Notes under the pieces: model-generated
What the model saw: the letters and a program-made list of their open reading frames with translations, nothing else
The model's database searches: none
Told to the model about the DNA's origin: nothing
Shown: positions 2,150-63,656 of the stretch, piece after piece
Layout: every line of letters starts with the position of its first letter
Numbering within the stretch: the stretch's first letter is position 1
Program-made: the position numbers and the translations under genes
Assembly (NCBI RefSeq): GCF_001632775.1
Contig: NZ_CP015249.1
Location: forward strand, 4,382,620-4,446,619
Origin: Dokdonella koreensis DS-123
GTDB taxonomy: Bacteria; Pseudomonadota; Gammaproteobacteria; Xanthomonadales; Rhodanobacteraceae
Direction: 5' to 3'
Length of the DNA stretch: 64,000 nucleotides

Positions 2150-3301
2150 TTACGGGGTCGGATCGAAGCCGTCGGCGAAGATCGGATCGGTGACGATCGG
2201 CGTCAGCATGAAGCTGCCGATGCTGTTGTCGGCCAGCCGGCCGGTACCGACGATCACGCCGTGCGCGTTGATGGCCACGGCATTGGAGAAGCGCGTGAAG
2301 CCGGCAGTATCGTCGACGTGCTGGTACAGGTCGTAGGTCGTCCCGTCGATGTGCACCCAGGCGCGCAGGCCGGGGACGATGCCGCTGGCGGTGCCGATGC
2401 CGGCGGTGCCGACGATCACGCCGGCCGCGTTGATCGCGACGGCGCCGCCGTTGGTCTGGTCCAGCGTCGCGCCCGGGAGCTCGGTGAAGGTGCCGTCCTG
2501 CGCGAAGACCACCGGCACCAGCACCGGCTCGGTGACCGACAGGCCCAGGCCCACCGCGATGCCGGCGTCGTTGACCGCGACCGCGATGCTGGCGAAGTCC
2601 TCGGTCATCGGGCTCATCGGGAGCACCTCCGGCACGCCCACCTGGCCGGCCACCGCATGGATCGTGGAGCTGTGCAGGTTCCAGTGGCCGACCAAGCGGC
2701 CGGCATTGTTGAGGGCATTCCAGCGCGCCTGCTGGTCGGGCATCGTCTCGTCCGGCAGGCCGTAGTCGACCAGGCCGTCCTTCGCGGTCCAGACGAACGC
2801 GCGGCTCGGCGCGCCGGTGCCGAAGCCGCCCTTGCCGCCGGCGACGACGCCCTGGTCGTTGATGTCATTGGGCTCGGCCGACTCCCCGACGGCCTGGCTG
2901 ATCACCGTGTACGGACCCGGCGCGGCGGCATCCCACAGGAGCGCCGCGATGCCACTGGAGAAATCGGTGGCGGTACCCACGATCTGGCCGGCATTGTTGA
3001 TCGCCTTGGCGATGCCGTCGACGTCGACGCCGGGCGTCACCGCGAGCGGATGGGCACCGGCGCCGTCCCACAGCACCGGCACCCGCACGAAATCGGCGTT
3101 CTGGTAGTGACCGACCACCTGGCCGGCATCGTTGATGTCGGTGACGGTGACGTTGGCCGCGTCCGGCGCGGTGAGCACGGTCAGGTGGTACTGCGGCGCG
3201 GCACCGGCACCGGCGGCGGCGCAGACCAGCGCCAGCGCGAGGGCACGGCGCAGCGAACGGATCGTGACCGGGGTGATGGGCCGGGGAGAGGTCGCAGTCA
3301 T
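2150..3301 (-). CDS. Secreted HAF-repeat protein with terminal IFADGFD motif
   Basis: Predicted exported protein of 383 residues with a Sec signal peptide (basic start, then LRRALALALVCAAAGAGAA, cleavage likely before APQYHL). The mature part is built of about six repeats of the form IN-x-AG-x-IVG followed by a short beta-strand segment (INDAGQVVGHYQ, INNAGQIVGTATD, LNNAGRLVGHW, VNDAGIAVG, INAAGVIVG, INAHGVIVG). This matches the extracellular HAF repeat family, a likely beta-propeller of unknown biochemical role. The chain ends in DPIFADGFDPTP, a tail shared with other secreted proteins in this window. It lies 160 bp downstream of the winged-helix/TPR regulator on the same strand. The start ATG at 3301 has an AAGG sequence about 10 bp upstream. 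The function is unknown. Confidence 0.8.
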   Translation of the reverse strand: MTATSPRPITPVTIRSLRRALALALVCAAAGAGAAPQYHLTVLTAPDAANVTVTDINDAGQVVGHYQNADFVRVPVLWDGAGAHPLAVTPGVDVDGIAKAINNAGQIVGTATDFSSGIAALLWDAAAPGPYTVISQAVGESAEPNDINDQGVVAGGKGGFGTGAPSRAFVWTAKDGLVDYGLPDETMPDQQARWNALNNAGRLVGHWNLHSSTIHAVAGQVGVPEVLPMSPMTEDFASIAVAVNDAGIAVGLGLSVTEPVLVPVVFAQDGTFTELPGATLDQTNGGAVAINAAGVIVGTAGIGTASGIVPGLRAWVHIDGTTYDLYQHVDDTAGFTRFSNAVAINAHGVIVGTGRLADNSIGSFMLTPIVTDPIFADGFDPTP

Positions 3302-3409
3302 GGGATAGGGCCTTCGAGCGCGGGAGGGAGAAACGCGGAGCCCGCAAGAGCGGTCCGCCGTGATGCCCCGACGATCCCGTCAATCGGACACGTCTGCATG
3401 TAAAAAGCC

Positions 3410-3427
3410 TGTATCGCGGATGTATCG
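3410..3427 (-). promoter_or_regulatory. 11-bp phased direct repeat (possible operator)
   Basis: TGTATCG occurs at 3410-3416 and 3421-3427 (CGATACA read on the coding strand), start to start exactly 11 bp, about 110-125 bp before the HAF-repeat gene. OmpR/PhoB-type winged helices typically bind 11-bp phased direct repeats, and such a protein is encoded just upstream. That it is the operator is inference. Confidence 0.4.
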
Positions 3428-3462
3428 ACGCGATAGATCCGCGGTTCCGGGACCGGCGACGC

Positions 3463-5789
3463 TCACGGCAGGGCAGCCAGCCCGTCAGGCAAGGGCCGTT
3501 CGCCAGCCAGGCGCAGGGCGCGCTCGTGCGCCGCGGCCGCGACCGTGGTCTTGCCGAGCGCCTGGTAGACCTGGGCCTCGCTCCAGGCGGCCCGCAGGTC
3601 GCGGTCGGCCCAGGGCGCGATACGGCCGTTGACCGAGACCGCCTCCTCGACACGGCCCGCCGCCAGCAGCTGGTCGACATACGGCTGCCCGACCGCGACC
3701 AGTTCCTCGGGGATGCCGCGCCGCGCCGCGCGATCCATCGCGTCGGCGAACTGCGGCAGCGCCGCGTCCGGCCGGTTCTCGGCGACGGCCTGGCCGGCCT
3801 CGGCCAGTGCCGCGTAGACCCGGTCGGACTGGTTCGGATCGGCCTCGCTCCAGGCGCGCAGGCGGGCCACCTCGGCTCGCGCCGCATCGACGTCGCCGCC
3901 CCCTGCAGCCCGCGGATGCGCGTCAGCCACACCAGCGCGTAGTCCAGGCGGCTGCGCGTCTGCAGCTCCGGCGTCAGCGCGTCGGCCGCCAGTTCCGCCG
4001 CCCGGGCCGGCCGGCCGCGCGCCAGCGCGATGCGCGCGGAAAGACCGGTCGCCTGCAGCCGCAGCGCCGCATCCTCCACCGCGTCGGAGCCGTCGAAGAT
4101 CCGGGCCACCAGCGTCTCGGACTCGTCGAGCCGGCCGCCGGCGGCCAGCGCGCGCGCCCGCGACAGCGTCAGCTCCCAGCGCTGGCGCTGGTTGCCGCCG
4201 TGCGCCTGGATCGGCCCGAAGCGCTCGCTGATCGCCAGTGCCGCGGCCGGATCGAGCAACTGCAGCTCGACGTCGACCTGGGCCGCCAGGGTCGCCGCCA
4301 GCGCATCCTCGGCGGCGAGCTGCTCGAAACGCTGGCCGGCGCTGCGCAGCAGCGGCAGGGCTGCCGCCGGCTGGCCGCGCTGCATCGCGTTCATGCCGAG
4401 GTTCAGGTCCACCGCCGCCACGCCGAACGCGTCATTGCGCAGTTCGTGCAGCGTGCGCGCACGGCCGTAGCTGATCGCCGCCGCTTCCAGCTGCATCCGC
4501 TGGCTGGCGACGCCGCCGATGCCGATGTAGGCGCGGGCGAGCACCCCCGGCTCGTCGGCGTCCTCGGTCAACGCGATCGACTCGGCGTAGGCGGCCTCCG
4601 CCGCGTCGATGCGCCCGAGCCGGAAGTACGTGGCGCCCAGCGTGTTCAGCGCACGCGCCCGCAGCACCGGCCCATCACCCGCCGGCAGGCGTTCGAGCAA
4701 GGCCTCCACCTGCCGGCGGCAGGCTTCGTACTCGCCGGAGAAGAACTCGATCGACGCGCGGCTGAGCGCGATCTCGGGGCGGTCCTGCAACGCCGACGCG
4801 GCGCCGGCGATCAGGGCCCGCGCGACATCCAGCTGCCCGGCCAGCACGGCGGCGTTGACCCGCCGCTGCAGCGTCTCCTGGGCCAGGGACGCATCGCCGG
4901 ACACGTCCGCCGGCGGCGTGTGGCCGAGCTTTATCAGCAGCTCGTCAGCCGCCTCGCGCGCCGCCTTCACCGCATCGTCCGCGCGGGTCTCGACGAGGAC
5001 CGTGCGCGTGCCGTCGCGCGCCTCGATGCGGACCGTCCAGGCGCCGTTGGCCTGCACCGCCTTCGGGCGGATCAGCCAGCGCGCCAGGTCGTGCCGCGCG
5101 CCGACCGCCGCCTCGCCGCCCTGCGCCTTGATCAGGGCGACGACCGTCTCGCCCGGTGCCGTCGCGAAGTTCCCGCGTTGCAGGTGACTGGAGACCAGGT
5201 CCATCAGGCCCAGCCGCAGCCAGCGCCAATCCTCGGGTGCATCGACCTCCGCCGGCAGCACCAGGGCCGCCAGCGGCGCCGGAGTCGCCGCGACCGGATC
5301 CGCCTTCCGGTGCAGCCACCATCCCCCTGCCGCCAGCATCAGCGCGAGGACCGCGGCCAGGCCGGCGAAGACGGCGCGGCGGCGCCACCGGGAAGCGGGT
5401 GCGGCCGTTCCGCTCGCGCCCGCAGCCGGCGGACCGGCATCGACCGGCGCGGCGCCCGGCTCCGATACCCCTTCGACCGTTCCGTCCATGACCCAGCGAT
5501 AGCCCAGCCGCGGCACGGTGCGGATGATGCGCTGGTCGTTGCCGGTGTCGCCGAGCAGCCGGCGCAGGCGCATGACGGCGTGATTGAGCGAAACCTCGCT
5601 GACGTCGACCCGCCCCCACACCGCCGCCGCCAGCTCGTCGCGGCCGACCGGCCGGTCACGGTGCCGGATCAGGTGGATCAGGCAGTCGATCGTGCTGAGC
5701 GGGAGGCTGATGCGGCGCTCGTCCTCGAACAGCTCGCGCGCCTGCGCATCGAGCCGGAAGCGGCCGAACCGATAGACCGGAATACTCAT
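3463..5789 (-). pseudogene. Winged-helix/TM/TPR regulator with an apparent frameshift
   Basis: One of five paralogous membrane regulators in this window. The N-terminal Trans_reg_C winged helix covers about residues 1-105 (LSTIDCLIHLIRHRDRPVGR, then RTVPRLGYRW), one transmembrane segment follows at about 138-160 (VFAGLAAVLALMLAAGGWW), and a TPR-rich part of about 600 residues would face the periplasm. This is the ToxR/CadC layout. The frame is broken near 3899-3903: coding-strand CAG plus a run of G is one base short, after which the family-like sequence (GGGDVDAARAEVARL to LRLAGERPLPDGLAALP) continues in the -1 frame down to 3463. Read literally, the upstream frame runs on to 2865 inside the HAF gene with no family resemblance. 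Either a real 1-bp deletion in a G5 tract or a sequencing error would explain it. TAACCT lies 6 bp before the ATG. Confidence 0.7.
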
Positions 5790-5795
5790 GCCGAC

Positions 5796-5992: not shown

Positions 5993-7843
5993 CTAGGGTT
6001 CGAAATCGTCGCGGAACAGCACGTCGTCGTTGACGACCGGCTGCAGCTCCAGCGCGCCGATGTCCACGCCCGCGCCGTACTCGCGCAGGTACGCACCACC
6101 GCGCTGATCGGTGGCGAGCCCGGTCGCATTGGTGCCGGCGTCGATCGCAGGGCTCGTCTCGGCCAGCGCATGGCTGAGGGTCGGGCCGCCGTTGTCGGCC
6201 AGCGGCAGCAGCTGCGGGTCGAGCGTGATCGTGTCGGCCGGCATCTGCGCCGGTGCGCCGCCGGCGTTGTCGATCAGGTTGTGCGAGCCGGCGATCGCCT
6301 TCGGGAACAGCCACACCTGGTTGGCCTGGCCATTGGTCGTGTTGGCCGAAACGATCGAACTGGTCAGCTCGACCTGCTCGGTATAGGAGTCGCCGCTGAT
6401 GCCGGCGCCGCGCCGCGTGGCCTGGTTGAACGCGACCGTGCTGTTGCTGAAGCGCACGCGGCCGCCGCTGACCATGACGCCGCCGCCCTCGCGGCCGGCG
6501 TTGCCGGAGATCGTGCTGTTGACGATCATCGAGTCGGCCGGCGCGTACTCCATGTAGAGCAGGGCCAGGCCACCGCCGTCGGCGCCGGCGGTGTTGCCGG
6601 TGATGCTGCTCGCCATCAGGTTGACGGTCGCGCCGAACGAAAGGATGCCGCCACCGCCTTCGTCGGTGCCGCCCTCGTTGCCGGCGCTGTTGCCGATGAC
6701 CCGGGTGCGCTCGAGCGATACCGTGCCTTGCCCCGGGGCGATCATGCCGCCGCCGGCCGAGGCGGCGCGATTGCCGCTGATCGTGCTGTCGAGGATCTCG
6801 ACCGTGGTGCCGGTGCCGGTGAAGCGCAGACCGCCGCCGCCGCCGTAGTGGCCCGGCGAGGTGACGACGTTGTCGAGCACATCGATGCGGCTCAGGCTGC
6901 CGCCGCCGCGCGCCCAGATGCCGCCGCCCTGCGGCGCACAGACGCCGCACTGGCTCTCGGCGGTGTTCTCGGCGATGCGCGTGCCGTCCATGTCCAGCGT
7001 CACCAGCGGCGCGCTGCCGCCGCGCGCACCGGCCGCGATGCCGCCGCCGAACACCTCGTAGCTGTCGGAGAACGCGATGTTGCCGCTGATCGTGCTGTCG
7101 ATCAGCTGGGCGTCGCCGCCGACGCGCAGGCCGCCGCCTTCGGTGATGTTGCCGAACATGTTGCCGCCGCTGACCGTATGGCTGTGCGCGCGGTTGTCGA
7201 CGAACCGGCTGCGCGTGGCGAGCAGCGTGCCGTCCACGGCCAGGCCGCCGCCGCGCACCAGCAGGTTGCCGTCGGCGACGTTGCCGACGAACTCGGCATC
7301 GGTCAGCGTGGCGTTGCCGGCCACCGCCGCGCCGCCGCCGCGGGTGTTCTCCACGCTCGCTTCGGCGGCCCTGCAGTCGCTGACCGCGACGTCGCTCAGC
7401 GTCAGGTTGCCGGCGGTCAGCAGGCAGCCGCCGTCGCCGGCGCTCTTGCCGTGCGTGAGGGTCAGGCCGGTCAACGACAGCGTCCCGGTGCCGCTGTGGT
7501 CGAAGATGCGGTCGCTGTCGCCGCCGCTGATCGCGAGCGCCTTGCGGCCCGGACCGGTCAGGCGCAGATCGGCGGCGGTCACGGGGATGGCGCCGCTGGT
7601 CAGCGTGATCGTGCCGCAGGCCAGACCCGACAGGTCGATCTCGGCACCGCTCGACGCCGCGGCGACCGCCGCACGCAGGCTGCCGGCACCCGCGTCGTCA
7701 CAGTTCTCGACGAGGACCGCGCCGCCGGCCGGTGCGGCGACGGCAGCAGCGGCCGGCGCCAGCAGCGCGGAGGCCAGGCAGAGGGCCAGGGGGTGGGGCC
7801 GCAGCATCTGCCGGGGAGAGGACGGACTACGCGTTGCGCTCAT
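5993..7843 (-). CDS. Secreted beta-helix protein with choice-of-anchor Q end
   Basis: Exported protein of 616 residues. I choose ATG 7843 (MSATRSPSSPRQMLRPHPLAL) over the upstream in-frame start because GGAG sits correctly before it and a signal peptide follows directly (LALCLASALLAPAAAAVAAPA). The mature part starts with a disulphide-type block (NCDDAGAGSLRAAVAAA, CGTITLT), typical of bacterial parallel beta-helix proteins. It continues in many rungs of the type STISGNxAxxxGGG. The end carries the choice-of-anchor Q block (NGGPTLSHALAETSPAIDAG, DQRGGAYLR, VDIGALEL) and stops in DDVLFRDDFEP, a variant of the tail motif found in neighbouring secreted proteins. The regulator gene at 7996 lies 152 bp upstream on the same strand. 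Expected at the cell surface or outside; adhesive or enzymatic role unknown. Confidence 0.8.
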   Translation of the reverse strand: MSATRSPSSPRQMLRPHPLALCLASALLAPAAAAVAAPAGGAVLVENCDDAGAGSLRAAVAAASSGAEIDLSGLACGTITLTSGAIPVTAADLRLTGPGRKALAISGGDSDRIFDHSGTGTLSLTGLTLTHGKSAGDGGCLLTAGNLTLSDVAVSDCRAAEASVENTRGGGAAVAGNATLTDAEFVGNVADGNLLVRGGGLAVDGTLLATRSRFVDNRAHSHTVSGGNMFGNITEGGGLRVGGDAQLIDSTISGNIAFSDSYEVFGGGIAAGARGGSAPLVTLDMDGTRIAENTAESQCGVCAPQGGGIWARGGGSLSRIDVLDNVVTSPGHYGGGGGLRFTGTGTTVEILDSTISGNRAASAGGGMIAPGQGTVSLERTRVIGNSAGNEGGTDEGGGGILSFGATVNLMASSITGNTAGADGGGLALLYMEYAPADSMIVNSTISGNAGREGGGVMVSGGRVRFSNSTVAFNQATRRGAGISGDSYTEQVELTSSIVSANTTNGQANQVWLFPKAIAGSHNLIDNAGGAPAQMPADTITLDPQLLPLADNGGPTLSHALAETSPAIDAGTNATGLATDQRGGAYLREYGAGVDIGALELQPVVNDDVLFRDDFEP

Positions 7844-7942
7844 CGAGAACTCCGAAACGGTCGGGAAAGCCCCGCGCGGCGGACCGCCGGGGGAGACCGA
7901 CCGAGCATGGCCCGGTGCACCGGGCGGCACCATGCCGAGGCT

Positions 7943-7968
7943 GTTCCGGTTCTGTTCGGCGGCCGTTC
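7943..7968 (-). promoter_or_regulatory. Three 11-bp phased repeats (possible operator)
   Basis: GTTC at 7943-7946, 7954-7957 and 7965-7968 (GAAC on the coding strand, in the context CCGAAC, CCGAAC, CCGGAAC), each 11 bp apart, about 100-125 bp before the beta-helix gene and directly behind the regulator gene. The spacing fits tandem binding by an OmpR/PhoB-type winged helix; the assignment is inferred. Confidence 0.45.
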
Positions 7969-7995
7969 GGACGTGATTCGGCGCGGTGGCGGCCG

Positions 7996-10395
7996 TCACG
8001 ACCCGTTGCCGAGCGCCGGCTCGCTGCCGGGCGCGCGCAGCAGCGCTGCCGGGATCGGCCGTTCCCCGGCCAGCCGGCGGGCGGTCGCCAGCGCATCGCG
8101 CCAGGCATCGGCCCGGCCGAGCGCGTGGTACAGCCGGACCTCCAGCAGGGCCGCATCGAAATCGACGTCGGCATAGCGGGCCGCCATCCCGACGACCGTG
8201 CTGGCCTGGGCCAGGTCGCCCTGCGCCAGCAGGAATCCGGCATAGGCCTCCACCACCCGGCCCGCCGTATTGGCGGCACCGCGCTGGCGCGCGAGGTCCA
8301 TCGCCTGCGCATACAGGGTCCGGGCCTCGCCGGACCGGCCTTCGGCGGCCGCTTGCCCGGCCTCTGCCAGCATGGCGTCGAGCCGGACCATCGGATCGCC
8401 GGTGGTGGCCGCCCAGGCGCGGAACGCGCGCACCTCCTCAGCCGCCTCGGGCAGGCGTCCGAGAACCCGCAGCGCCTGGGTGGCGATCCGCCAGCCGGTC
8501 GCGCGCGACCGGTCGAACTCCGGACCCGGCAGGTGCGGCAGCGCCTGCCGCGCCAGCAGCAATGCGGTCTCGGTCTCGCCGAGACGAAGGTCCAGGCCGG
8601 CCAGGCTGACCTGGGCGATCGCCCGCTGCGGCCAGTCGCGGCTGGCGTCGGCCTCGCGGATCATCTCGTCGAGCAGGATGCGCGCCTCGCCGAGCCGGCC
8701 GTTTTCTTCCAGCGCGCCGGCGCGCTGGTGGCGGAACAGGTTGCGCACGTCGCGATCCTGCACGCGCCCCAGGTACGACCAGCCCTGGTCGCTCGCCGCC
8801 AGCGCCGACGCCGGCTGCAGCAGCGCCAGGTGCGCGCCGATCTGGTTGGCCAGCGAGATCATGAGCTCGTCGATCAGGCCAAAGCGCTCGAACTGGCGCG
8901 CCGCCCGCTGCTGGATCGGCAATGCTTCGGCCTGGCGTCCCTGCGCCATCTCCAGCGTGCTCTCGTTGCTGTCCACGCGCGCCAGCAGCAGCGGATCGCC
9001 GGCCAGGCTCAGCGCGATGCGCGCGCGCGCGAAATCGGCCTGGGCCAGCGCATGGCGCTGCATGCGCGCATGGATCACGCCGCGGTCGTTGTAGGTGTGC
9101 CCGAGCAGCGCCGGCTGGTTGCGCGTCTCGAGCAAGGCGATCGCACGGTCGCAGGCGGCCAGCCCCGCATCCATCTGGCCGAGCCGGTTCAGCGCGATGC
9201 ACAGGCCGTCCTGCACGCGCGCATGCAGCACCGGATCGGTCTCGGCGGACACGTCCGCCAGCAGTGCATCCAATGCGGCACGCCCCTCGGCGAAGCGGCC
9301 GGTGCGCAGGTCGACCAGCGCGCCACGCAGGCGCACGGCCGGCAGGTCGCGCAACGCGGGCGCCGCACCCTCGATCAGCGCCCGTGCCCCGGCCGTATCG
9401 TCCGCCAGCCGCGCCGCGTCGATGCGCTGGACCAGCTCCGTCGCCGACAGCTCCATCGCCGCCGCCGGCGTCGGCACCGACCGCCCGAACTGGCCGAGCA
9501 GCCGCTCGACCACGGTGTCGCCGGCCGCGATCGCGCTGTCGGCTTCCGCCTGCAGCGGCCGTCGTGTGCCGTCCGGCTCGATCAGGTCGGCGTGGACCAC
9601 CCAGCCCTTGCCGGTGCGGCGCACCGCCGGAAGCACCAGATGACGCACGTCCAGCGCCACCCGCACCGCAGCGATCGCCGCCTCGCCCTCGACGCCCGGC
9701 CGCACCAGCCGGACGATGCCGTCGCTGGCCAGCACCGGCAGTCCGGCCGTGCGCAGCCGTGTCGCGATCAGGTCCATCAGGCCCAGGCGCAGCCAGGCGT
9801 CATCGTCCGTCGCGAACACTTCGGCCGGCAGCACCGCGATCGCGTCGCCCGGCAGGCCGTCGGCGGCGCGCGCCACCGTCGCGGGCGCTTCCGGCGGCGC
9901 CTCCGGCGGGCGGATGCGCAGCCAGGCCAGCCCCGCCACCACGGCCAGCCCGAGCACCAGCGCAGCCAGCAGCCACCGGCGGGAATCGCTGCGCGACGGC
10001 CGCACCGGTGTCGGGACGTCGGCCGGTGCAGCCAGGTCGATCGCCTCGCCCGCGATCGCCGGCGCCGGCACCGCGTCCTCGACGGTGACCGGGCCTACCC
10101 AGTGATAGCCGAAGCGCGGCACCGTGCGCAGCAGCGCCTGGGTTTCGGCGCTGTCGCCGACCGCGCGGCGCGCCGCCAGGATCGCCTTGCCGAGCATCGT
10201 GTCGCTGACGCTGGCCTTGCCCCAGACCGCCGCGACCAGTTCGTCGCGGCCGACCGCGCGGTCGCGGTGCTCGACCAGGTAGGCGATGCAGTCGAACACG
10301 GTCGGCGGCAGGTCCACCCGTACGCGGTCGCGCCGCAGCTCGCGCGCGGCGATGTCGAGGCTGCACTCGCCGAAATGGTGGACGCGCCGGTTCAT
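7996..10395 (-). CDS. Winged-helix/TM/TPR one-component membrane regulator
   Basis: Protein of 799 residues, paralogous to those at 3463, 15170, 47485 and 60710. The N-terminal DNA-binding domain (about 1-105) shows LPPTVFDCIAYLVEHRDRAV, GRDELVAAVWGKASVS and LLRTVPRFGYHWVG, the last being the wing typical of Trans_reg_C. A proline/acid-rich linker leads to one transmembrane segment at about 141-163 (WLLAALVLGLAVVAGLAWL). The remaining 630 residues begin with a TolB/FlgO-like stretch (IAVLPAEV, WLRLGLMDLIATRL) and continue as helical TPR-like repeats, ending in RRLAGERPIPAALLRAPG. This is a ToxR/CadC-like layout: signal sensed outside, promoter bound inside. It is followed by a secreted beta-helix gene on the same strand. 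TACCCT sits 6 bp before the ATG. Confidence 0.85.
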   Translation of the reverse strand: MNRRVHHFGECSLDIAARELRRDRVRVDLPPTVFDCIAYLVEHRDRAVGRDELVAAVWGKASVSDTMLGKAILAARRAVGDSAETQALLRTVPRFGYHWVGPVTVEDAVPAPAIAGEAIDLAAPADVPTPVRPSRSDSRRWLLAALVLGLAVVAGLAWLRIRPPEAPPEAPATVARAADGLPGDAIAVLPAEVFATDDDAWLRLGLMDLIATRLRTAGLPVLASDGIVRLVRPGVEGEAAIAAVRVALDVRHLVLPAVRRTGKGWVVHADLIEPDGTRRPLQAEADSAIAAGDTVVERLLGQFGRSVPTPAAAMELSATELVQRIDAARLADDTAGARALIEGAAPALRDLPAVRLRGALVDLRTGRFAEGRAALDALLADVSAETDPVLHARVQDGLCIALNRLGQMDAGLAACDRAIALLETRNQPALLGHTYNDRGVIHARMQRHALAQADFARARIALSLAGDPLLLARVDSNESTLEMAQGRQAEALPIQQRAARQFERFGLIDELMISLANQIGAHLALLQPASALAASDQGWSYLGRVQDRDVRNLFRHQRAGALEENGRLGEARILLDEMIREADASRDWPQRAIAQVSLAGLDLRLGETETALLLARQALPHLPGPEFDRSRATGWRIATQALRVLGRLPEAAEEVRAFRAWAATTGDPMVRLDAMLAEAGQAAAEGRSGEARTLYAQAMDLARQRGAANTAGRVVEAYAGFLLAQGDLAQASTVVGMAARYADVDFDAALLEVRLYHALGRADAWRDALATARRLAGERPIPAALLRAPGSEPALGNGS

Positions 10396-10401
10396 GTCGG
10401 C

Positions 10402-14975: not shown

Positions 14976-15047
14976 CGGACCGTCCCACGGCAGTGAAGTA
15001 CACGGCGAGTCTGGCCCAAGGCCGCCGGCCGGCGCATTCGGGATGGA

Positions 15048-15073
15048 TTCAAGAGCGCTTCAGGGGTGCTTCA
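15048..15073 (-). promoter_or_regulatory. Three 11-bp phased repeats (possible operator)
   Basis: TTCA at 15048-15051, 15059-15062 and 15070-15073 (TGAAGC, TGAAGC, TGAATC on the coding strand), each exactly 11 bp apart, 73-98 bp before the DUF1566 protein gene. Same phasing as in the other modules but a different repeat word. Confidence 0.45.
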
Positions 15074-15169
15074 TGGCCCCGCAACGCCGAGGCGATGGCC
15101 GTACCACGGGGGCGGGCCACCGCGCTGCCGGCGCCACGCCGCGTTCCAGCGCCTCATGCCGGTCGGCCG

Positions 15170-56200: not shown

Positions 56201-59200
56201 ACGGTCACGACCAACGTATCGGGCAATGCGGTGGTCGACGCGGTCGCCAACGGTATCGCCGGTGGCTACGTCGTGACCGCCAGCATCGCGTCATCGTCGA
56301 ACGGCGATGCCACCTTCCGGCTGGCCAATCTGGTGTCGAGCGACCTGACGGTCACCGCCATCGGTGCGACCACCCAAAGCACGCCGGTCGGCCACGCGTT
56401 CGCCGACCCGATAGCGATCCGCCTTGCCTATGCGAACGGCGCCCCGGCTGCCGGCGTAACGATGATCTTCGCGACCGACAACAGTCCGTCGCAGGCGATG
56501 GCGACGCTGACCTCGACGGACGGCGAGTGCTGGAACGATCCGGTGCTCTACGTCGGAACCCGGTGCGAGATCACGACCGACGCGAACGGCGAAGCCCAGG
56601 TCAGGGCTACCGCGAACGGCCACGTCGGAACCTACACCTACTACGCGTACATCGAGACGCCCGCATTCGTCTATGCGGACTTCCAGCTGACCAATACCGA
56701 GGCGACCGGTGAGCCCAAGGTCGTCATCAGCCAGCTCTACCGGTCGAGCACGGCCACGGCGCCGTACAGCAACGACTTCATCGAACTGTTCAATGCCGGA
56801 GACGCGCCGGCGGACCTGACTGGATGGTCGGTACAGTACGCGACCGGCTCGTCGACGGCCTGGACGCCGATCGACCTGACCGACGTCCTGCTGCAGCCGG
56901 GCCACTACTACCTGATCCAGGGGGCGGTCGGGTCCGCCGGCACGCCCGCGCTTCCGGCGCCGGACGCGACGACGGACCTTCGCCTCAACAACCTGACCGG
57001 TCGGGTGGCGCTGGTGCGCACGGGAACGCTGCTGGACGGCGCGGGGTGTCCGACGAACACGGGCGATCTGGTCGACTTCCTTCGCTATTCGGCGGCGTCG
57101 GTCGATGCCTGTGGCTGGGGAACCGGGGCGCCCACGCCCACCTCGGCGCTGGCACTCAAGCGCCTGGGCGAGGGCTGTTCCGCCAGCCACGACAACAGCC
57201 GGGATTTCTCGCGGCAGACGCCGACACCGCGCACGACGGCGAGTCCCGCGCATGCCTGCGTGCAGCTGAACATCGAAGCCATCGGCGGCACGCCGCAATC
57301 GACCGATCCGAACACGGCATTCGCCGTGCCGCTGACCGTACGGGTGACCGACGAAGGCGGTGCGCCGGCGGACAACGTCACCGTGAGTTTCGCCGCGCCG
57401 GGCAGCGGCGCCAGTGCCGCGCTGTCGGCGGCGACGGCGACGACGAACGCGGCCGGCGAAGCCAGCATCACCGCGACCGCCAACGCGATCACCGGCCACT
57501 ATCAGGTGACGGCGACCATCGACGGCGCCAGCGTCGGTTTCGAGCTGACCAACGCCCTGTCCAACGTCACGGCGACGGCGATCGGCGGCACACCGCAATC
57601 GGCGCGCGTCAATCAGCCGTTCGCGGCGCCGCTGACCGTGCGGCTGACCGCCCAGAACGGCCAGCCGGTCGTGAACGTCGCGGTGACGTTCGCGGCGCCG
57701 GGCGGCGCCGCGGCCAGCGCCGCGCTGTCGGCGACCACGGTGACCACGGACAGCAACGGCGAGGCCCGCGTCGACGCCACCGCCAACGGCCGGGCGGGCC
57801 GCTACACCGTGTCCGCAACCATTGCCGATGCCCGCGCGGACTTCGTCCTGACCAACACCAACACGGTGGTGATCAGCCAGTTCCAGGCCGGTGACGACGG
57901 GTTCGTCGAGCTGTTCAACGCCGGCATCCAACCGCAGGATCTTTCCGGCTGGTCGGTCCAGACGGCGGCCGCCCCGTCTTCGAGCGTCTGGAGCCTGACG
58001 CCGCTCACCGGCGTCGTCCTGCAACCGGGCCAGTACTACCTGATTCAAGCGGGACAAGGCGCGGGCTGGCCGGCGTTGCCGGCGCCCGACGTGACCGGTG
58101 CCGCATTGGGATTGAGTACCTTCTGGGGCCGCGCTGCCCTGGTGGATACGACCGGTCCGCTGACCGGCACGTGCCCAGCCGATGCACGCATCGTCGATTT
58201 CGTCGGCTACGGATCGGGCATGACCTGCTTCTGGGGATCGCCGGCGCCGGCACACAGCGACGTATCGTCCGAGTTGCGCCGCGATCACGGCTGCGCCACC
58301 ACCGGCGACAACGGTGCTGATTTCGAGGTGGTCTTTCAGCCGGTCCGGCGCAGCACCGCCTCGCCGGTCTACCGGTGCGACCAGATCGACCTGGCGATCT
58401 CGGCGATCGGCGGCACGCCCCAGAGCGCACCCGTCCAGCACGGCTTCGCAACCCCGCTGGCGGTACGGGTCGTCAACGGTACCGGCCAGCCCGTCAGCGG
58501 CGTCGAAGTCGCGTTCGCCGCGCCGGCAGCCGGTGCCGCCGCGATCCTGTCGTCGACCACGGCGATCACCGACGGCAACGGCGAGGCAAGCATCACGGCG
58601 AGCGCCAACCAATGGGCTGGCCGCTATCCGGTCACTGCCCGCCTGGCGACCGACGCGGCCGCGCAGTTCGACCTGACCAATACCGGCACCTTGAGCGGGC
58701 CGCGGGTGGTGATCAGCCAGATCTATCCCGGCAGCGTCTCCGGCAGCGGCAGCTACTTCCGCAACTTCGTGGAGCTGTTCAATGCCGGGGACCAGCCGGC
58801 ATCGCTCTACGGGTGGTCGCTGCAGATCGGAGGCGCCGTGACGGCCCTGCCGGGCATGGCGCTGCAGCCCGGCCAGCGCTTCCTGATCGCGCTGGACGGC
58901 TACGGCGGCACCTTGCCGCCGGCCGACGCGAACGGTAGCGGCAATGCCGGAGCACCCTGGCTTGCGCTGGTGGCGGGTACGCAGCCGCTGACCGGCAGCT
59001 GCCCGGCCGGCGATGCGTCGATCATCGATTTCGTCGGCCATGGCACCGGCACCTGCGCCTGGGGCACGGTCGCGCCGGCCCCGTCCGGGTCGCGGGCATT
59101 GATACGCAACCAGAACGGCTGCGCCCATTCGGCCGACAACGCTGCGGATTTCAGCATCGCCGATCCGGTGCCGCGCAACAGCGCCAGCCCGTTCGAGCCG

Positions 59201-60469
59201 TGCGGCGGCAGCGCACCGGCAGCGCTCGCGGTGACCGTCCTCGACGGTGCCGGCCAGACCGCGGGATTGAACAAGCGTTTCACCCGTCCGCTGAAGGTCC
59301 GCGTCACGACCACCGGTGGTGTTGCGGCGCCGGGCCGCACCGTGAACTTCCTGGTGCAGGCCGAGGGTGCAACGGCAGCCTTGTCGTCCGTGGCGGTCGA
59401 GACTGACGGCAACGGCGAGGCCAGCGTGATCGCCACCGCCAATGCCGTCACCGGCCCCTACGCGGTGCGCGCCGTCGTCGGTACGGCACGCGCCGACATC
59501 GGCTTGAGCAATATCGGCGAACTGGATGCTCTCTCGACACCCGGCCAGCAGGCGTACGTCAATGCGCCGTTCCGCGAACTGCGCGTGCGTGTGATCAAGG
59601 AGCCGAGGCCCAACGGCAACGCCGAGGGACTCCCGAACGTCCCGGTGCAGTTCACCGCACCAGCCAGCGGAGCGTCGGCCCTGCTCTCGGCGACGACCGT
59701 CGTCACCGATGCCAACGGCGAGGCGCGGGTCGGTGCGGTCGCCAATGGCTTGGCCGGCAGTTACGCGGTCACCGCCCGCATCGCGGGAACCGCTGCGCCG
59801 GTGAATCTTGCATTGACGAACCTGACGCCCGATGGCTTCGCGCAACCGTGGGACGGCTGGTCGGTCGACGGCCTGAACCTGCCGCGCAACCGCAATGTCT
59901 GGGTCCGTGCGCGCGGCTTCACCGCGGACGGCTCGATCCATGAATCGGTGAAGCTGTTCTACCCGACCGGCGGCCATACCGCGACGCCGGTAGCCGGCGC
60001 GCACGGACGCATCGAGCCGGCGATCGCACAAGGCGGGGCCGCCGGCACGGTGCTCAGCTTCACGATCGTGCCGGACGCCGGCCATGGGATCTCCAGCGTC
60101 ACCGGCTGCGGCGGTTCGCTCAACGGGTCGACCTACCTGACGGCGCCGCTGGCGGCCGATTGCGAGGTGGTGGCGAGCTTCAGCGGCGGCGTGGCGACGC
60201 ATACGGTGATCGCGAGCGCCGGCGCGGGCGGAACGATCGCGCCGGCCGGCGCACAGACCGTGAACGAAGGCGAGACGATGAGCTTCCTGCTGATCCCGGG
60301 CGCCGGCCAGCAAGTGGCCACGGTTGCCGGAACCTGCGGTGGCGTCCTGACCGATGAGGTGTTCACGACCGCACCGGTGACGGGTGATTGCACGGTACAG
60401 GCGACGTTCCGGCCGGCCTCGACCGGCGACCGGATCTTCGTGGACGGCTTCGACGGTCCTTCGCCGTAG
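53270..60469 (+). CDS. Giant secreted mosaic protein: delta-60 repeats, Ig-like and lamin-tail domains
   Basis: Exported protein of 2399 residues; ATG 53270 is preceded by GAGGAAA, and the signal peptide is VASLALMLGQAAPVAAQ. Residues about 30-780 are roughly 14 delta-60 repeats (VQPDGKILIGGAFTAAG, RLNADGSLDAGF), a likely beta-propeller. About seven Big_1-like Ig domains follow (FAAPGSGASAALSAATATT, AGEASITATAN). Interspersed are three lamin-tail-like domains (VVISQLYRSS near 1150, VVISQFQAGDDGFVELFNAG near 1530, VVISQIYPGS near 1810). Two InlB-type B repeats (HTVIASAGAGGTIAPAG) come last before DRIFVDGFDGPSP. It lies 60 bp behind the protease, so they are probably co-transcribed. The role is likely at the cell surface (adhesion or matrix); there is no enzymatic motif. 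Confidence 0.85.
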   Translation: MLRSTLRHWMRVASLALMLGQAAPVAAQTAYDGFNPPAMNGFPTALAVRADGKILISGHFSLGNSGIARLFPDGSHDPTFVAGGFSSDTLLGMTVRANGDVLLVGESTAGNGGGAVALVTHDGSTVFHRFAIANGAVHSAVEQAAGKILIAGAFTEVMGQARPRIARLNADGSLDAAYVPPAGANGTITRLVSQPDGKVLAIGDFTTFGGRPRVRIARLNADGSLDAGFDLPTGANGSINSLAVQPDGKILIGGAFTAAGHAARNYVARMNADGSLDAGFPSGAGPNGPVNDIVFQTDGRILIVGHFLAVDGRPRTRVARLHHDGALDERYPPNDTLATGTLRAAAGVNAPVTAAALQRDGKVVVIGPFTEADGKPRSGVARLNTDGSLDANLEIGPYAPILGWQNGGTASVFNATTIQPDGKFLIGGQFDQSHGVPRKGIVRFNADGSLDLGFDPGAGASFPFGNGDAFSVASIVLQSDEKILVGGTFTSFDDVPSPGLVRLHRDGSRDATFSLPALYPSDNSIPAVSHIAVQPDHAVLVAGYIQTQEGGGYRKILRFLPDGSLDPSFRPYDFAATNPWTNYVIGLQVQNDGRILLNIVAGDTQAIHLRYMIRLYPDGSLDPSFHLNLDLTANGQNGGIDDVVVQPDGKILIFGGFKVIRGQPRTAITRLNAEDGSLDPSFVANVDPSTSPRIASVALQPDGSMLITSDLNYLIDGARTGKVARLLSDGRLDRRFDFTPPVGPYSAGFASRLAVDASGKTLMAGQFNWQYPGTQCCDSVARISPPEPARQALVLDTAQTHAEWLRASNGPEFNRTTFEWSVDGQTWALAGAGRLIPAGVGSVAAPWVLAVQAFDVQAGQVDTARQPGPYLASPMGQVARLMHIASLAGARTDAAPGRTADAAGAAAGDTEHATGGGRGGALKITATGGTPQNTVVGLPLVNGLGVRVTDVDNLPVADVPVTFSAPASGAGAVLSSTTVTTNVSGNAVVDAVANGIAGGYVVTASIASSSNGDATFRLANLVSSDLTVTAIGATTQSTPVGHAFADPIAIRLAYANGAPAAGVTMIFATDNSPSQAMATLTSTDGECWNDPVLYVGTRCEITTDANGEAQVRATANGHVGTYTYYAYIETPAFVYADFQLTNTEATGEPKVVISQLYRSSTATAPYSNDFIELFNAGDAPADLTGWSVQYATGSSTAWTPIDLTDVLLQPGHYYLIQGAVGSAGTPALPAPDATTDLRLNNLTGRVALVRTGTLLDGAGCPTNTGDLVDFLRYSAASVDACGWGTGAPTPTSALALKRLGEGCSASHDNSRDFSRQTPTPRTTASPAHACVQLNIEAIGGTPQSTDPNTAFAVPLTVRVTDEGGAPADNVTVSFAAPGSGASAALSAATATTNAAGEASITATANAITGHYQVTATIDGASVGFELTNALSNVTATAIGGTPQSARVNQPFAAPLTVRLTAQNGQPVVNVAVTFAAPGGAAASAALSATTVTTDSNGEARVDATANGRAGRYTVSATIADARADFVLTNTNTVVISQFQAGDDGFVELFNAGIQPQDLSGWSVQTAAAPSSSVWSLTPLTGVVLQPGQYYLIQAGQGAGWPALPAPDVTGAALGLSTFWGRAALVDTTGPLTGTCPADARIVDFVGYGSGMTCFWGSPAPAHSDVSSELRRDHGCATTGDNGADFEVVFQPVRRSTASPVYRCDQIDLAISAIGGTPQSAPVQHGFATPLAVRVVNGTGQPVSGVEVAFAAPAAGAAAILSSTTAITDGNGEASITASANQWAGRYPVTARLATDAAAQFDLTNTGTLSGPRVVISQIYPGSVSGSGSYFRNFVELFNAGDQPASLYGWSLQIGGAVTALPGMALQPGQRFLIALDGYGGTLPPADANGSGNAGAPWLALVAGTQPLTGSCPAGDASIIDFVGHGTGTCAWGTVAPAPSGSRALIRNQNGCAHSADNAADFSIADPVPRNSASPFEPCGGSAPAALAVTVLDGAGQTAGLNKRFTRPLKVRVTTTGGVAAPGRTVNFLVQAEGATAALSSVAVETDGNGEASVIATANAVTGPYAVRAVVGTARADIGLSNIGELDALSTPGQQAYVNAPFRELRVRVIKEPRPNGNAEGLPNVPVQFTAPASGASALLSATTVVTDANGEARVGAVANGLAGSYAVTARIAGTAAPVNLALTNLTPDGFAQPWDGWSVDGLNLPRNRNVWVRARGFTADGSIHESVKLFYPTGGHTATPVAGAHGRIEPAIAQGGAAGTVLSFTIVPDAGHGISSVTGCGGSLNGSTYLTAPLAADCEVVASFSGGVATHTVIASAGAGGTIAPAGAQTVNEGETMSFLLIPGAGQQVATVAGTCGGVLTDEVFTTAPVTGDCTVQATFRPASTGDRIFVDGFDGPSP

Positions 60470-60475
60470 CGGATG

Positions 60476-60509
60476 GTGCACTGCCGGCCGGTGCCGGCCG
60501 GCAGTGCAC
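60476..60509 (+). terminator. 34-bp perfect inverted repeat behind the giant gene
   Basis: 16-bp arms (60476-60491 and 60494-60509) are perfectly complementary around 2 bases, 7 bp behind the stop. It is very stable but has no U tract. Probable terminator or mRNA 3' end structure closing the first module. Confidence 0.6.
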
Positions 60510-60697
60510 GGCAAGTGCCCCTCCGTGCCAGAAGAGCGGCGCCTTTACCGACAGGCACGGTGTGACGGGAATGACGGGCATGGGGCCTGAGGGTCTCCGG
60601 CGCCAGCCGGGACGGTCCGGTTCTCACCGGCCCCCGCGCCAGACGCCTGCCGGGTCGGCTCACCACGGACCCGGGCATTCAGGCGGGGGCGCACCAC

Positions 60698-60703
60698 TAC
60701 AAT
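60698..60703 (+). promoter_or_regulatory. -10-like TACAAT, leaderless-type promoter
   Basis: TACAAT lies 6 bp before ATG 60710, with CACTACAATAGCC identical to the element at 47473. Confidence 0.6.
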
Positions 60704-60709
60704 AGCCGG

Positions 60710-63112
60710 ATGACCCGGCGCAGCTACCGATTCGGCGACAACATCCTCGATGTGGACGCACGTCGGCTGCTGTCCGCCGGCCGGCCCGTGCAGGTCCCGG
60801 CCAAGGTGTTCGACTGCCTGGTCTACCTCGTGCAGCACAGGGGCCGGGCGATCGGCCATGACGAACTCGTCGCGGCCGTCTGGGGCAAGACCGAGATCAG
60901 CGAGTCGCTGTTGCGCCAGACCATTCGCCGGGTGCGGAGCGTGCTCGACGAGGATGGCAGCCAGCAGAGCGTGCTTCGGACCGTTCCCGGCTTCGGCTAC
61001 CAGTTCGCGGCCGAGGTCGCGGTCGAGGACCGGCAGGACGGCCGGCCCGGCCTCGACGGTGCCGATCCGCGCAGCGCGCGCGCAGCGCCGCCGGCGGGCG
61101 ATGGGTCTGTCGTGGGCGATACGCCCGCGCGATCGCCGATCCGGCGGCGCGGCTGGCGCACCGCGATCGGCGTCATCGTGCTTGCCGCTGCCGTCACCGC
61201 CGTCGGGTTCGGATTCGACCGCTGGACGGCCCGCACGCCGGCTGCCGGGACGCCGTCGCTGGAAGCCGCCGCCGTCCTGCCGGTGGCGGTCAACACCGCC
61301 GACCCGACCTGGTCCTGGGTGCGTCTTGGCCTGATGGACTTGCTGGCGACGCGCCTGCGCAGCGGCGGCCAGCTGGTCGTACCGAGTGAAAGCGTGGTCG
61401 CGCTCGCGCGCGGCGACGCCGCGAACGACGGCAGCGACGCGATACGGACCGGCACCGGCGCCCGCTACCTGGTCGTTCCGTCCGCACGCCGGACCGACAA
61501 GGATTGGGTCGTCCGCCTCGAACTGCGCGAGGCGGACGGCGCCACCCGTGACGTCGAAGCGCGCAACGCCGATCTCGTCATCGCCGGCCGCCGCGCGGCC
61601 GATCAGCTGCTGGCCTTGCTCGGGAAAGCTCTGCCGGTCGATCAGGCCGGCACCGCGGACGCGCAAGCCGACGAACTGCTGGCGCGAATCAAGAGCGCCT
61701 TGTTGCGCGATGACGTCGACTCGGCGCGCGCGCTGATCGACGGCGCGCCGGCGCAGCTCCAGCGCTCGCCGGAACTGCGCTTCCTGCACGCCGACATGGA
61801 TGTCCGCAGCGGCCGATTCGACGAGGCGCAACGGCGCCTCGAAAGCCTGCTGGCCGAGGCGGGCGCCGAGGAAGCCCCGGTATTGCGCGCGCGCGTGCTG
61901 AACGGCCTCGGCCTGATCGCGGTCCGCAAGGAGCAGCCCGCACACGCGATCGCCCCGCTCGACGAGGCGATCGCGCTGCTCGGAGAGCGCAACGAGCCGG
62001 AGGTGCTCGGCAATGCCTACAACACGCGCGGCATGGCGCACTCGCGCCTGAGCCAGTACGACCTCGCCAGCGCCGATTTCGCGCGGTCGCGCCTCGCGTC
62101 GGAAATCGCCGGCAACATGCGGCTGCTCACGCTGATCGACAGCAACGAAGGCTTGCTGGCGATAAGCCGCAACCAGCCGGCCGCCGCGCTGCCGTTGTTC
62201 GAGCAGGCCGCCGAGCGCAGCGAGCGGCTCGGTATCCTCAACAGCTTCGCGCTGGCATCCGCCTACACGATCTGGATCCATCTGGCCCTCCTCGAGCCGG
62301 AGCGCGCACTGGCGCTCTACGAGGCGGTCTCACCGAAGCTCGATGGGCTGCGGAACCCGACCGGCGTGTTCACCATCGCGTTCTCCGGCGCCATCGCGCT
62401 GCAAGGCAACGGCCGTCTTTCCGAGGCGCGCGCGCAGCTGGACCGGCTCGCCGAGAATGCACAGGACACGGTCACCAAGGGCGTCGTGCGCGGCCAGCAG
62501 GCGCAGGTCGAGTTCGAACGGCGGCAGCTGCAGCCGGCGCTGACGTTCGCGCAGGAGGCCGTCGATCTGCTCGTCATGCCGGATGACGCAGGCACGCGCG
62601 CGCAGGCCTGGCTGGTGGTCGTGCGCGCGCTGCGCGGGCTGGAACGGTCCAGCGATGAGGCTGCAGCGCTGACGCGGTTCGCCGCCTGGGCCGAGGGTGT
62701 CGACAGCGCGCCGGTCCGCATGTCGGCCCGCATCGCCCAGGCCGAGCAGGCCTGGAGCGACCGGCGGTACGACGAGGCGATCGGCGACTACGAGGATGCC
62801 TTGCGCACTGCCATTGGCGAAGCCGTCCCGGCGGAGATCGCACTCGTCGTGACCTCGTACGGCGCGGCGCTGATCGAAAATGACCGGCTCGACCGTGCCA
62901 GCGCGGTGATCGGGCAGGTCGCGCGCTGGAGCGAGCACGATTTCGCCTGCGCGGTGGCTCAGGCGCGGCTGTACCGCGCCCTCAGGCAGCGTGAAGCGTG
63001 GCAGCTCGCGATCGATCGCGCGCGGCGGCTGGCCGGGGAACGGTCCCTGCCTGCTGGTGTCGCCACCTTCCCTCCTGAACCGACGATCGGTACCCCGGGC
63101 GCCGACCACTGA
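60710..63112 (+). CDS. Winged-helix/TM/TPR one-component membrane regulator (tandem paralogue)
   Basis: Regulator of 800 residues, highly similar over its whole length to the one at 47485: the winged helix is nearly identical (VPAKVFDCLVYLVQHRGRAI, GHDELVAAVWGKTEISESLL, VLRTVPGFGYQF). The linker differs and the transmembrane segment is at about 150-172. The periplasmic part shares NAYNTRGMAHSRLSQYDLAS and the end LAGERSLPAGVATFPPEP. The recognition region is conserved between the two, and both intergenic regions carry the same TCACGC pair, so the two regulators may bind the same sites. Downstream follow a decayed protease gene and a second delta-60 protein. Confidence 0.88.
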   Translation: MTRRSYRFGDNILDVDARRLLSAGRPVQVPAKVFDCLVYLVQHRGRAIGHDELVAAVWGKTEISESLLRQTIRRVRSVLDEDGSQQSVLRTVPGFGYQFAAEVAVEDRQDGRPGLDGADPRSARAAPPAGDGSVVGDTPARSPIRRRGWRTAIGVIVLAAAVTAVGFGFDRWTARTPAAGTPSLEAAAVLPVAVNTADPTWSWVRLGLMDLLATRLRSGGQLVVPSESVVALARGDAANDGSDAIRTGTGARYLVVPSARRTDKDWVVRLELREADGATRDVEARNADLVIAGRRAADQLLALLGKALPVDQAGTADAQADELLARIKSALLRDDVDSARALIDGAPAQLQRSPELRFLHADMDVRSGRFDEAQRRLESLLAEAGAEEAPVLRARVLNGLGLIAVRKEQPAHAIAPLDEAIALLGERNEPEVLGNAYNTRGMAHSRLSQYDLASADFARSRLASEIAGNMRLLTLIDSNEGLLAISRNQPAAALPLFEQAAERSERLGILNSFALASAYTIWIHLALLEPERALALYEAVSPKLDGLRNPTGVFTIAFSGAIALQGNGRLSEARAQLDRLAENAQDTVTKGVVRGQQAQVEFERRQLQPALTFAQEAVDLLVMPDDAGTRAQAWLVVVRALRGLERSSDEAAALTRFAAWAEGVDSAPVRMSARIAQAEQAWSDRRYDEAIGDYEDALRTAIGEAVPAEIALVVTSYGAALIENDRLDRASAVIGQVARWSEHDFACAVAQARLYRALRQREAWQLAIDRARRLAGERSLPAGVATFPPEPTIGTPGADH

Positions 63113-63248
63113 CGTTCGCTTGGCCGGCTGCCCCCTGAGGAGCCCAGGCCAGCACCCGCCGATCCTCCGTGGACAGGCCGACCTGGCAGGTGGGCCGGAT
63201 ACGACGCGCCATTGCAGTCGCGTGACAACGGCTCCTCCCAGGCGTGAA

Positions 63249-63275
63249 TCACGCGTTTTATCGGTTTTTTCACGC
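63249..63275 (+). promoter_or_regulatory. TCACGC direct repeat, 21-bp phase (possible operator)
   Basis: TCACGC at 63249-63254 and 63270-63275, start to start 21 bp, as at 50080-50106. A TATATC hexamer at 63317-63322 keeps the same 41-bp distance. Confidence 0.5.
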
Positions 63276-63398
63276 GAAATACATAGTCGTGACTGCGGTC
63301 GTTGCGGGTGGCGACGTATATCTGCGGGACTCAAACGGGGGTGGTCAGGTGCTGCGGCGCCGCATCGGCCTCCGGAACCTCCCAGAGGGGATCCACAG

Positions 63399-63656
63399 AT
63401 GCCAGCTCCACTTCGTGCGGTCGCATCGTCCGTACCGGAACGCACGGTCAGGACCTTCCTCGTCGCACCGGCGCCGGCGGCCAGCCTGGTTTCGATCCTG
63501 TTAGCGGCGTCGCATGCGCCCGAGGCGGATGCGCGCGCCATCGACGCCCCCGGCAGCGGCGTGCTGCGGGTCGACTTCGCCTTCGCCGACCCCGGCATCA
63601 CCGATCGCATCTTTCGCAGCGGCTCCGAACCGGCCGCCCTGCGCGAGTGGAACTGA
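63399..63656 (+). pseudogene. Remnant of the protease gene (both ends kept, middle lost)
   Basis: An 85-codon frame whose start region is homologous to the protease at 50231: a shared RAIASSVP/RAVASSVP stretch and an equally homologous upstream region. Its end (PGSGVLRVDFAFADPGITDR, then IFRSGSEP) matches the protease C-terminus (VSGVVRIDFDFAAPGVADRI). About 900 codons between, including the whole catalytic domain, are missing in frame. The tail motif is degenerate (IFRSGSEP for IFLQGFE) and extended by REWN-like residues. It may still be translated as a small secreted peptide, but it looks like a decayed paralogue. Confidence 0.7.

What the first reader, a model, noticed from the sequence alone, without database searches (positions are those of the whole stretch)
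2150..63656. Five-fold repeated unit: membrane winged-helix/TPR regulator plus secreted protein
Regulators at 3463-5789, 7996-10395, 15170-17572, 47485-49917 and 60710-63112 are paralogues with one layout (winged helix, single TM, TolB/TPR-like outer part, LAGxRPxP end). Each is followed on the same strand by large secreted proteins of unrelated folds: HAF repeats, beta-helix, DUF1566 mosaic, protease plus delta-60 mosaic, and a decayed protease plus delta-60 mosaic. The regulator family is fixed while the cargo varies, which suggests a general locally controlled surface-protein system. I know of no named system of this kind. The pairing is seen; the function is inferred.
Basis: partly seen in the sequence, partly recalled or inferred. 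Interest (0 to 1): 0.88.

Follow-up and report, generated by a model that had tools for sequence, protein, structure and literature searches.

The report
Private switches for many surface proteins
This bacterial genome carries 47 related genes for predicted membrane-spanning regulators, most of them beside a gene for a predicted secreted protein whose start region often holds its own 11-base repeated DNA site, so the cell can likely switch each surface protein separately.

Summary
The five regulators belong to a 47-member family spread over this 4.45-Mb genome (51 long winged-helix frames, 4 set aside). The next gene is same-strand with a predicted signal peptide for 30 of 45 regulators, against 100 of 431 other genes; in loci of named records, nearly all Lysobacterales, 48 of 80 against 206 of 959. 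The new result is a likely operator: tandem direct repeats with a period of exactly 11 bp between regulator and cargo, in 23 of 39 own and 27 of 53 named gaps, against 3 of 123 and 10 of 233 control gaps; periods 10 and 12 give 2-4. In named loci the arrays go with both adjacency and a secreted product (29 of 72, against 1 of 53, 11 of 152, 10 of 325, and 3 of 57 regulator promoters). Units differ between loci. Eleven bp is the tandem-site spacing of an OmpR/PhoB-type winged helix (PMC4832192, passages). Many cargoes also end in a short F-x-D-G-F-E/D tag, which is widespread without the regulator. Binding, direction of control and signal are inferred. A new variant of transmembrane one-component regulation.

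The parts
3463..5789 (-). Regulator R1 (winged helix, TM, TPR); frame break near 3870-3930
3396..3428 (-). 11-bp tandem array between R1 and its HAF cargo (TCGATACATCC GCGATACAGGC TTTTTACATGC), z 4.4
   Evidence: coordinates worked out by hand from the gap printed
2150..3301 (-). Cargo C1: HAF-repeat protein, predicted signal peptide, ends IFADGFDPTP
7996..10395 (-). Regulator R2; structure model mean pLDDT 91.3
7930..7984 (-). 11-bp array R2-C2 (GCGCCGAATCA CGTCCGAACGG CCGCCGAACAG AACCGGAACAG CCTCGGCATGG), z 6.1
5993..7807 (-). Cargo C2: beta-helix plus choice-of-anchor Q domain at 530-589 of 604, ends VLFRDDFEP
15170..17572 (-). Regulator R3
15036..15079 (-). 11-bp array R3-C3 (GGGCCATGAAG CACCCCTGAAG CGCTCTTGAAT CCATCCCGAAT), z 6.1
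11004..14975 (-). Cargo C3: Lcl_C/Ig-like mosaic; tag-like LFRDGYERYG 143 residues before the end
47485..49917 (+). Regulator R4; no clear array in its gap (z -0.3)
50282..53209 (+). Cargo C4: subtilase with choice-of-anchor J domain, ends RIFLQGFE
53321..60469 (+). Second cargo of R4: delta-60/Ig-like/LTD mosaic of about 2380 aa, ends RIFVDGFDGPSP
60710..63112 (+). Regulator R5 (69% identical to R4)
63220..63274 (+). Weak 11-bp array in the R5 gap, z 2.6 (below threshold)
62991..63656 (+). Remnant of a protease cargo: start and end resemble C4, catalytic middle absent
   Evidence: by eye
63693..64000 (+). Start of an open delta-60 cargo that appears to continue across the contig end (L001:2-5356, 1784 codons, ends FVNGFDGSSP)

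Best explanation
Each unit is likely a self-contained membrane switch: a regulator with a DNA-binding winged helix, predicted to be anchored in the inner membrane by one helix, likely binds a private array of 11-bp direct repeats at the promoter of its neighbouring secreted-protein gene and would turn that gene on when its predicted periplasmic TPR coil binds a ligand. Shown: the family, the neighbouring genes, the sequence arrays, their exact period, their dependence on adjacency to a regulator and on a (predicted) secreted product. Predicted: topology, signal peptides, TPR solenoid. Inferred: that this regulator binds this array, that the effect is activation, that the ligand is a peptide or protein met in the periplasm. 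The genome holds 47 copies of the regulator with differing operator units and cargoes, so each surface protein could have its own switch.
Against: About half of the pairs show no array at this sensitivity, including R4 (z -0.3) and, below threshold, R5 (2.6). An array in L050 (z 4.8) lies before a TrmB-like, non-secreted gene, and the 300 bases before the RsgA-like gene at 992 score z 5.6 without being a regulator-cargo gap. Operator similarity tracks the recognition helix only weakly once overall relatedness is removed (partial r 0.085, 50 of 1000 permutations as high; rest of the domain 0.079, 87 of 1000; 46 of 50 arrays used) and tracks the periplasmic part better (0.33), so helix-operator matching is not proven. 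Paralogues with related cargo are not more alike in their regulators (periplasmic 0.320 vs 0.312, p 0.19; DNA-binding 0.507 vs 0.500, p 0.29), which gives no sign that the TPR part recognises the cargo. The signal-peptide score is a home-made rule with a background of about 22%. No expression or binding data exist here.
Confidence: 0.72

Rival explanations
1. The units spread as passengers: regulator and secreted gene were duplicated together and the regulators control dispersed regulons, so adjacency is history and not function.
For: Some whole units look duplicated: L026 and L038 both carry an FG-GAP cargo and then a second cargo ending in the same way; R4 and R5 are 69% identical with the same two cargo types, the protease of R5 being a remnant.
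Against: In named loci arrays are frequent only at adjacent secreted genes and not at adjacent non-secreted genes or the regulators' own promoters. Related cargoes do not go with related regulators, so most pairs are not simple recent co-duplications. Pseudoxanthomonas and Lysobacter loci with untagged cargo keep pair and array (L152, L158, L159).
Confidence: 0.12
2. The 11-bp arrays are operators of some other OmpR/PhoB-type regulator or a DNA-bending protein that acts on surface-protein genes; the neighbouring membrane regulator acts differently.
For: The genome has other PF00486 proteins: 16 of the 67 hits lie in shorter frames and four more long ones are outside the family.
Against: Units differ from locus to locus, which does not suit one shared regulator, and secreted genes far from a regulator rarely have arrays (11/152; tagged genes without one 4/43).
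Confidence: 0.1
3. The regulator is a repressor or an envelope-load sensor: it binds the same array but shuts the cargo gene down when exported cargo piles up in the periplasm.
For: A large peptide-binding type of solenoid on the predicted periplasmic side and a neighbour whose product is predicted to pass through the periplasm.
Against: CadC, a well studied relative, is an activator (PMC5430869, start of abstract and passages). Array position (38 of the 50 arrays with z>3 end 50-140 bp before the predicted start) suits an activator as well as a repressor.
Confidence: 0.2

Closest known systems
ToxR/CadC-class transmembrane transcription regulators (survey PMC10269533: abstract and part 1 of the Results read; CadC DNA-binding domain PMC5430869: passages)
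   Same: N-terminal OmpR-type winged helix, one TM helix, C-terminal outer part, no receiver domain. The survey reports on average 5 such regulators per bacterial genome, up to 158 in one species.
   Different: Outer part is an alpha/beta domain plus a 12-TPR solenoid (model); 47 paralogues of one family in one genome; mostly beside a secreted gene; tandem 11-bp arrays, whereas the CadC paper describes two sites in head-to-head arrangement.
OmpR/PhoB response regulators such as PhoP (PMC4832192, passages)
   Same: Winged helix and direct repeats with 11-bp period; binding of three and four repeats is described.
   Different: No phospho-receiver; membrane-anchored; repeat unit differs from copy to copy.
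RRNPP peptide receptors (Rap, NprR)
   Different: RRNPP receptors act in the cytoplasm (recalled); here the solenoid is predicted to be periplasmic, the DNA-binding part is a winged helix, and the neighbour is a secreted protein, often large.
Co-component systems VtrA/VtrC, ToxR/ToxS (PMC9214523, start of abstract in search listings only)
   Same: Membrane winged-helix regulator working with a neighbour gene's product.
   Different: Their partner is a periplasmic co-receptor; here the neighbour is a varied surface-type protein and looks like the regulated product.
C-terminal sorting signals of the PEP-CTERM kind (recalled)
   Same: A short conserved C-terminal motif on exported proteins of unrelated folds; in two of eight proteins scanned it stands directly after a choice-of-anchor Q domain.
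   Different: F-x-D-G-F-E/D lies mostly 6-22 residues from the end with no following TM helix and no basic tail.

Membership tests
Transmembrane transcription regulator (ToxR/CadC class) | N-terminal OmpR-type winged helix | tested here: met
   PF00486 in 5 of 5 window regulators, 40.9-57.9 bits against a cut-off of 26.2; solved relative CadC 5ju7, E 5e-18 with the family alignment
Transmembrane transcription regulator (ToxR/CadC class) | At least one TM helix after the DNA-binding part | tested here: met
   hydrophobic segment starting at residue 121-176 in 43 of 46 family members; none found in L004 and L037, at 247 in L046; helix 139-160 in the model. Topology itself not measured
Transmembrane transcription regulator (ToxR/CadC class) | No phospho-receiver domain (one-component) | tested here: met
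   no Response_reg match at E<=0.001 in 5 of 5
Transmembrane transcription regulator (ToxR/CadC class) | Controls transcription from the membrane | not testable with these tools
   operator-like arrays are circumstantial
CadC equivalog (NF007540) | Curated full-length score of 400 bits | tested here: not met
   best 57.4 bits, N-terminal part only
HilA/EilA (NF009037) | Curated full-length score of 589 bits | tested here: not met
   best 49.7 bits
RRNPP peptide receptors (Rap/NprR) | TPR solenoid of this shape | tested here: met
RRNPP peptide receptors (Rap/NprR) | Soluble cytoplasmic protein | tested here: not met
   hydrophobic helix between winged helix and solenoid
PEP-CTERM-like sorting signals | Motif followed by TM helix and basic tail | tested here: not met
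   tag mostly lies 6-22 residues from the stop; the printed C-termini show no hydrophobic segment behind it
PEP-CTERM-like sorting signals | Motif confined to exported proteins | tested here: inconclusive
   55 of 239 signal-peptide genes tagged vs 17 of 353 others in the own-genome stretches, which were partly chosen by the tag; wrong starts may explain some of the 17

The most novel reading that the evidence does not exclude
An inside-out RRNPP system: the TPR solenoid in the periplasm reads the exported neighbour itself, for instance its C-terminal F-x-D-G-F-E/D end, so that each membrane regulator senses whether its own surface protein has been exported and sets its gene by feedback through a private 11-bp array. 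The tag would be at once a new sorting mark and the signal.
Probability: 0.1. Interest if true: 0.93.

Novelty: new variant of a known kind. Interest (0 to 1): 0.74.

Why it matters
If true, this is a modular way to run a large surface proteome: 47 look-alike one-component switches in one genome, many with their own operator and one or two exported proteins. It gives a natural set of matched winged-helix/operator pairs for reading the recognition code of the OmpR/PhoB fold, it offers a membrane regulator class whose target can be predicted from sequence alone, and it points to an unnamed C-terminal tag on many exported proteins of this order. It makes direct tests possible of how membrane-bound transcription factors find their sites.

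Tried and rejected
A single-protein scan of genome contigs with R5 found no relative; the 46-row alignment was too diverse for pattern scanning (error), so a 10-row subset was used. Idea that the regulator reads the cargo fold: related cargoes do not go with related regulators (in one search the DNA-binding-domain value was NaN because of one partial gene call, L005, and is void). Idea that the FxDGFE tag belongs to the regulator system: rejected, because the tag pattern is frequent in genomes where few or no regulators were found (e.g. 97, 91 and 83 hits in G026, G031, G034 with no regulator at E<=1e-30 among the candidates scored) and most tagged genes without a regulator lack arrays. In the class-level sample the pattern stays low in the 112 genomes from other orders (0-35 hits, controls 0-25). 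Auto-regulation through the same array: not seen in named loci (regulator promoters 3/57); in the own genome the mean profile upstream of 15 regulators is only slightly raised at 11 (12.0). Helix-operator code by Mantel test: only weak. In one search the group 'convergent control secreted' gave 17/106 with z>3; it is contaminated, since a cargo is itself the convergent neighbour of the gene behind it; one search repeats the test with neighbours of regulators taken out. In one search divergent secreted neighbours of regulators gave 2/5, divergent non-secreted 1/17, divergent controls 8/85 and 6/173. Searches for a published description listed no paper that I could recognise as describing this family, pairing or tag; subscription papers are not in that library.

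Rows dropped before counts: of 51 long winged-helix frames, four (L015, L031, L032, L051) were set aside as not of the family; next-gene counts leave out regulators without a callable next gene and genes whose next gene is a regulator; array counts use same-strand gaps of 100-620 bp only; of 79 named loci, four gave no next gene and two no gene call at the regulator, while some loci hold more than one regulator, hence n = 80; 40 of 42 further tag regions were fetched. Two pairs of named loci are over 90% identical (L100/L126, L129/L134) and five loci of the third sample are identical to named ones. The regulator search over relatives scored at most 25 or 6 candidates per genome, so copy numbers there are lower bounds.
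Full report
WHAT IS THERE. The window is the last 64 kb of a single-contig genome of 4,446,619 bases. Its five regulators are real and paralogous. A scan of the genome with PF00486 gives 67 hits, 51 of them in open frames of 740 codons or more. After gene calling on fetched loci, 47 of these 51 belong to one family: about 800 residues, winged helix, one hydrophobic segment near residue 140 (43 of 46), TPR region and an LAGER-x-x-P-like end in most; 46 of them (all but the frame-broken R1) align with 39% mean column identity. The closest named hits in public data are Dokdonella proteins called 'winged helix-turn-helix domain-containing protein', and the best loci in the genome collection are from Dokdonella, with further ones from Tahibacter, Lysobacter, Luteimonas, Dyella, Pseudoxanthomonas, Rhodanobacter and Chiayiivirga. 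That the window is Dokdonella is an inference. In 150 genomes of the order, 36 have a member at E<=1e-60 (22 of 64 genera), so the family is patchy.

PAIRING. I wrote a simple codon-based gene caller and a rule-based signal-peptide score and counted the next gene. Own genome: same strand and signal peptide in 30 of 45 regulators vs 100 of 431 other genes; strict C-terminal tag in 22 of 45 vs 12 of 431. Named records: 48 of 80 vs 206 of 959; tag 26 of 80 vs 15 of 959. The upstream same-strand neighbour carries the tag in only 2 of 45 and 3 of 79. In Luteimonas and Lysobacter loci several neighbours are large signal-peptide proteins without the tag (L100, L113, L124). Own-genome cargoes include Kelch, FG-GAP, LVIVD, HAF and delta-60 repeats, beta-helices, subtilases and proteins without a Pfam match at 1e-6; one next gene, in L050, is instead a TrmB-like regulator.

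OPERATORS. Looking at the gaps showed tandem repeats, for example CATGC/CTTGC every 11 bases in L018 and TTGGAGCCGGA repeated in L030. The mean best self-match in regulator-to-next gaps peaks at shifts of 11 and 22 and nowhere else between 5 and 30, in the own genome (13.9 at 11, 12.7 at 22, 10.8-11.7 elsewhere) and in named loci (13.3, 12.3, 10.4-11.5), while control gaps are flat. With a tandem-array score against dinucleotide shuffles, z>3 occurs in 23 of 39 own and 27 of 53 named gaps; controls 3 of 123 and 10 of 233; period 10 gives 2 of 39 and 4 of 53, period 12 gives 2 of 39 and 3 of 53. A third sample gives 6 of 12 vs 0 of 12, or 5 of 10 without duplicates. The arrays depend on the regulator, not on the tag. 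The cleanest table is on named loci: promoters of genes that are next to a regulator and secreted 29 of 72; next to a regulator but not secreted 1 of 53; secreted but far 11 of 152; neither 10 of 325; regulators themselves 3 of 57 (one further regulator, scored as secreted, was negative). Own regulators that are not collinear with a secreted gene have an array at a convergent or divergent secreted neighbour in L037, L043, L042 and L008; L019, L041, L035 and L005 have tagged genes nearby without an array. In the window the arrays are clear for R1, R2 and R3, sub-threshold for R5 (2.6) and absent by this score for R4 (-0.3). The score also fires once in the window where no regulator-cargo gap is, before the RsgA-like gene at 992 (z 5.6).

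WHY THIS POINTS TO THE REGULATOR. The published rule for OmpR/PhoB winged helices is binding to direct repeats; PhoP needs 7-bp motifs with a 4-bp spacer, that is 11 bp, and binds three and four repeats more strongly (PMC4832192, passages). Units differ between loci but agree between apparent orthologues: L030 and L153, L088 and L089, R2 with Tahibacter L096 and Dokdonella L099. A general helix-to-operator correlation is weak once relatedness is removed, so this step stays inferred.

THE TAG. F-x-D-G-F-E/D as a DNA pattern occurs 91 times in the genome vs 3 for the reversed control. Among genes found away from regulators, 35 of 42 motif-bearing calls have it within 22 residues of the end; the other 7 run off the fetched stretch with the motif 200 or more residues before their end. 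Behind regulators it is mostly 6-11 residues from the end, with some copies 140-220 residues inside. In two of eight proteins scanned with NCBIfam it follows a choice-of-anchor Q domain directly; that such domains stand before sorting signals is recalled. It is high in all ten genomes of the genus searched (62-91) and in several other families of the order, low in most of the own family and low in other orders. Its role is unknown; a sorting or anchoring mark is my guess.

VERDICT. A real, genome-wide module of membrane one-component regulator, often a private 11-bp array, and secreted protein; a new variant of the ToxR/CadC class. Direct binding, sign of control and ligand remain to be tested.

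Noticed in passing
genome-wide; window 2163-2179 (-), 53189-53205 (+), 60437-60453 (+): Unnamed C-terminal tag F-x-D-G-F-E/D on many exported proteins, frequent in some families of the order and rare in most of the own family; possible new sorting signal.
   Followed up: partly
window 20457-22565 (-) and 11004-14975 (-); L011, L022, L026, L034, L047: In some cargoes the tag-like motif stands 140-220 residues before the end and is followed by a further C-terminal part.
   Followed up: no
L026, L038 (second cargo), L109, L111, L083, L009: A second recurring C-terminus, roughly YAYDxxGxPIxIP, on secreted proteins behind or beside these regulators.
   Followed up: no
window 2865-5789 (-): Frame break near the 3' end of regulator R1; sequencing error or decay cannot be told apart here.
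   Followed up: no
L058, L138, L207, L219, L220: Distant family members are convergent with a recurrent neighbour (ends like ...RDVMMQTITESGRIGK or ...PITSGWRDSG), a possible separate pairing.
   Followed up: no
L170 (promoter of the tagged gene at genome position 1406857): An 11-bp array (z 5.6) at a tagged gene with no regulator next to it in the fetched stretch.
   Followed up: no
L047, L050, L049, L039, L026, L044 gaps: The repeat copy nearest the cargo, or the DNA just after the array, often contains GAATG, perhaps part of the promoter.
   Followed up: no
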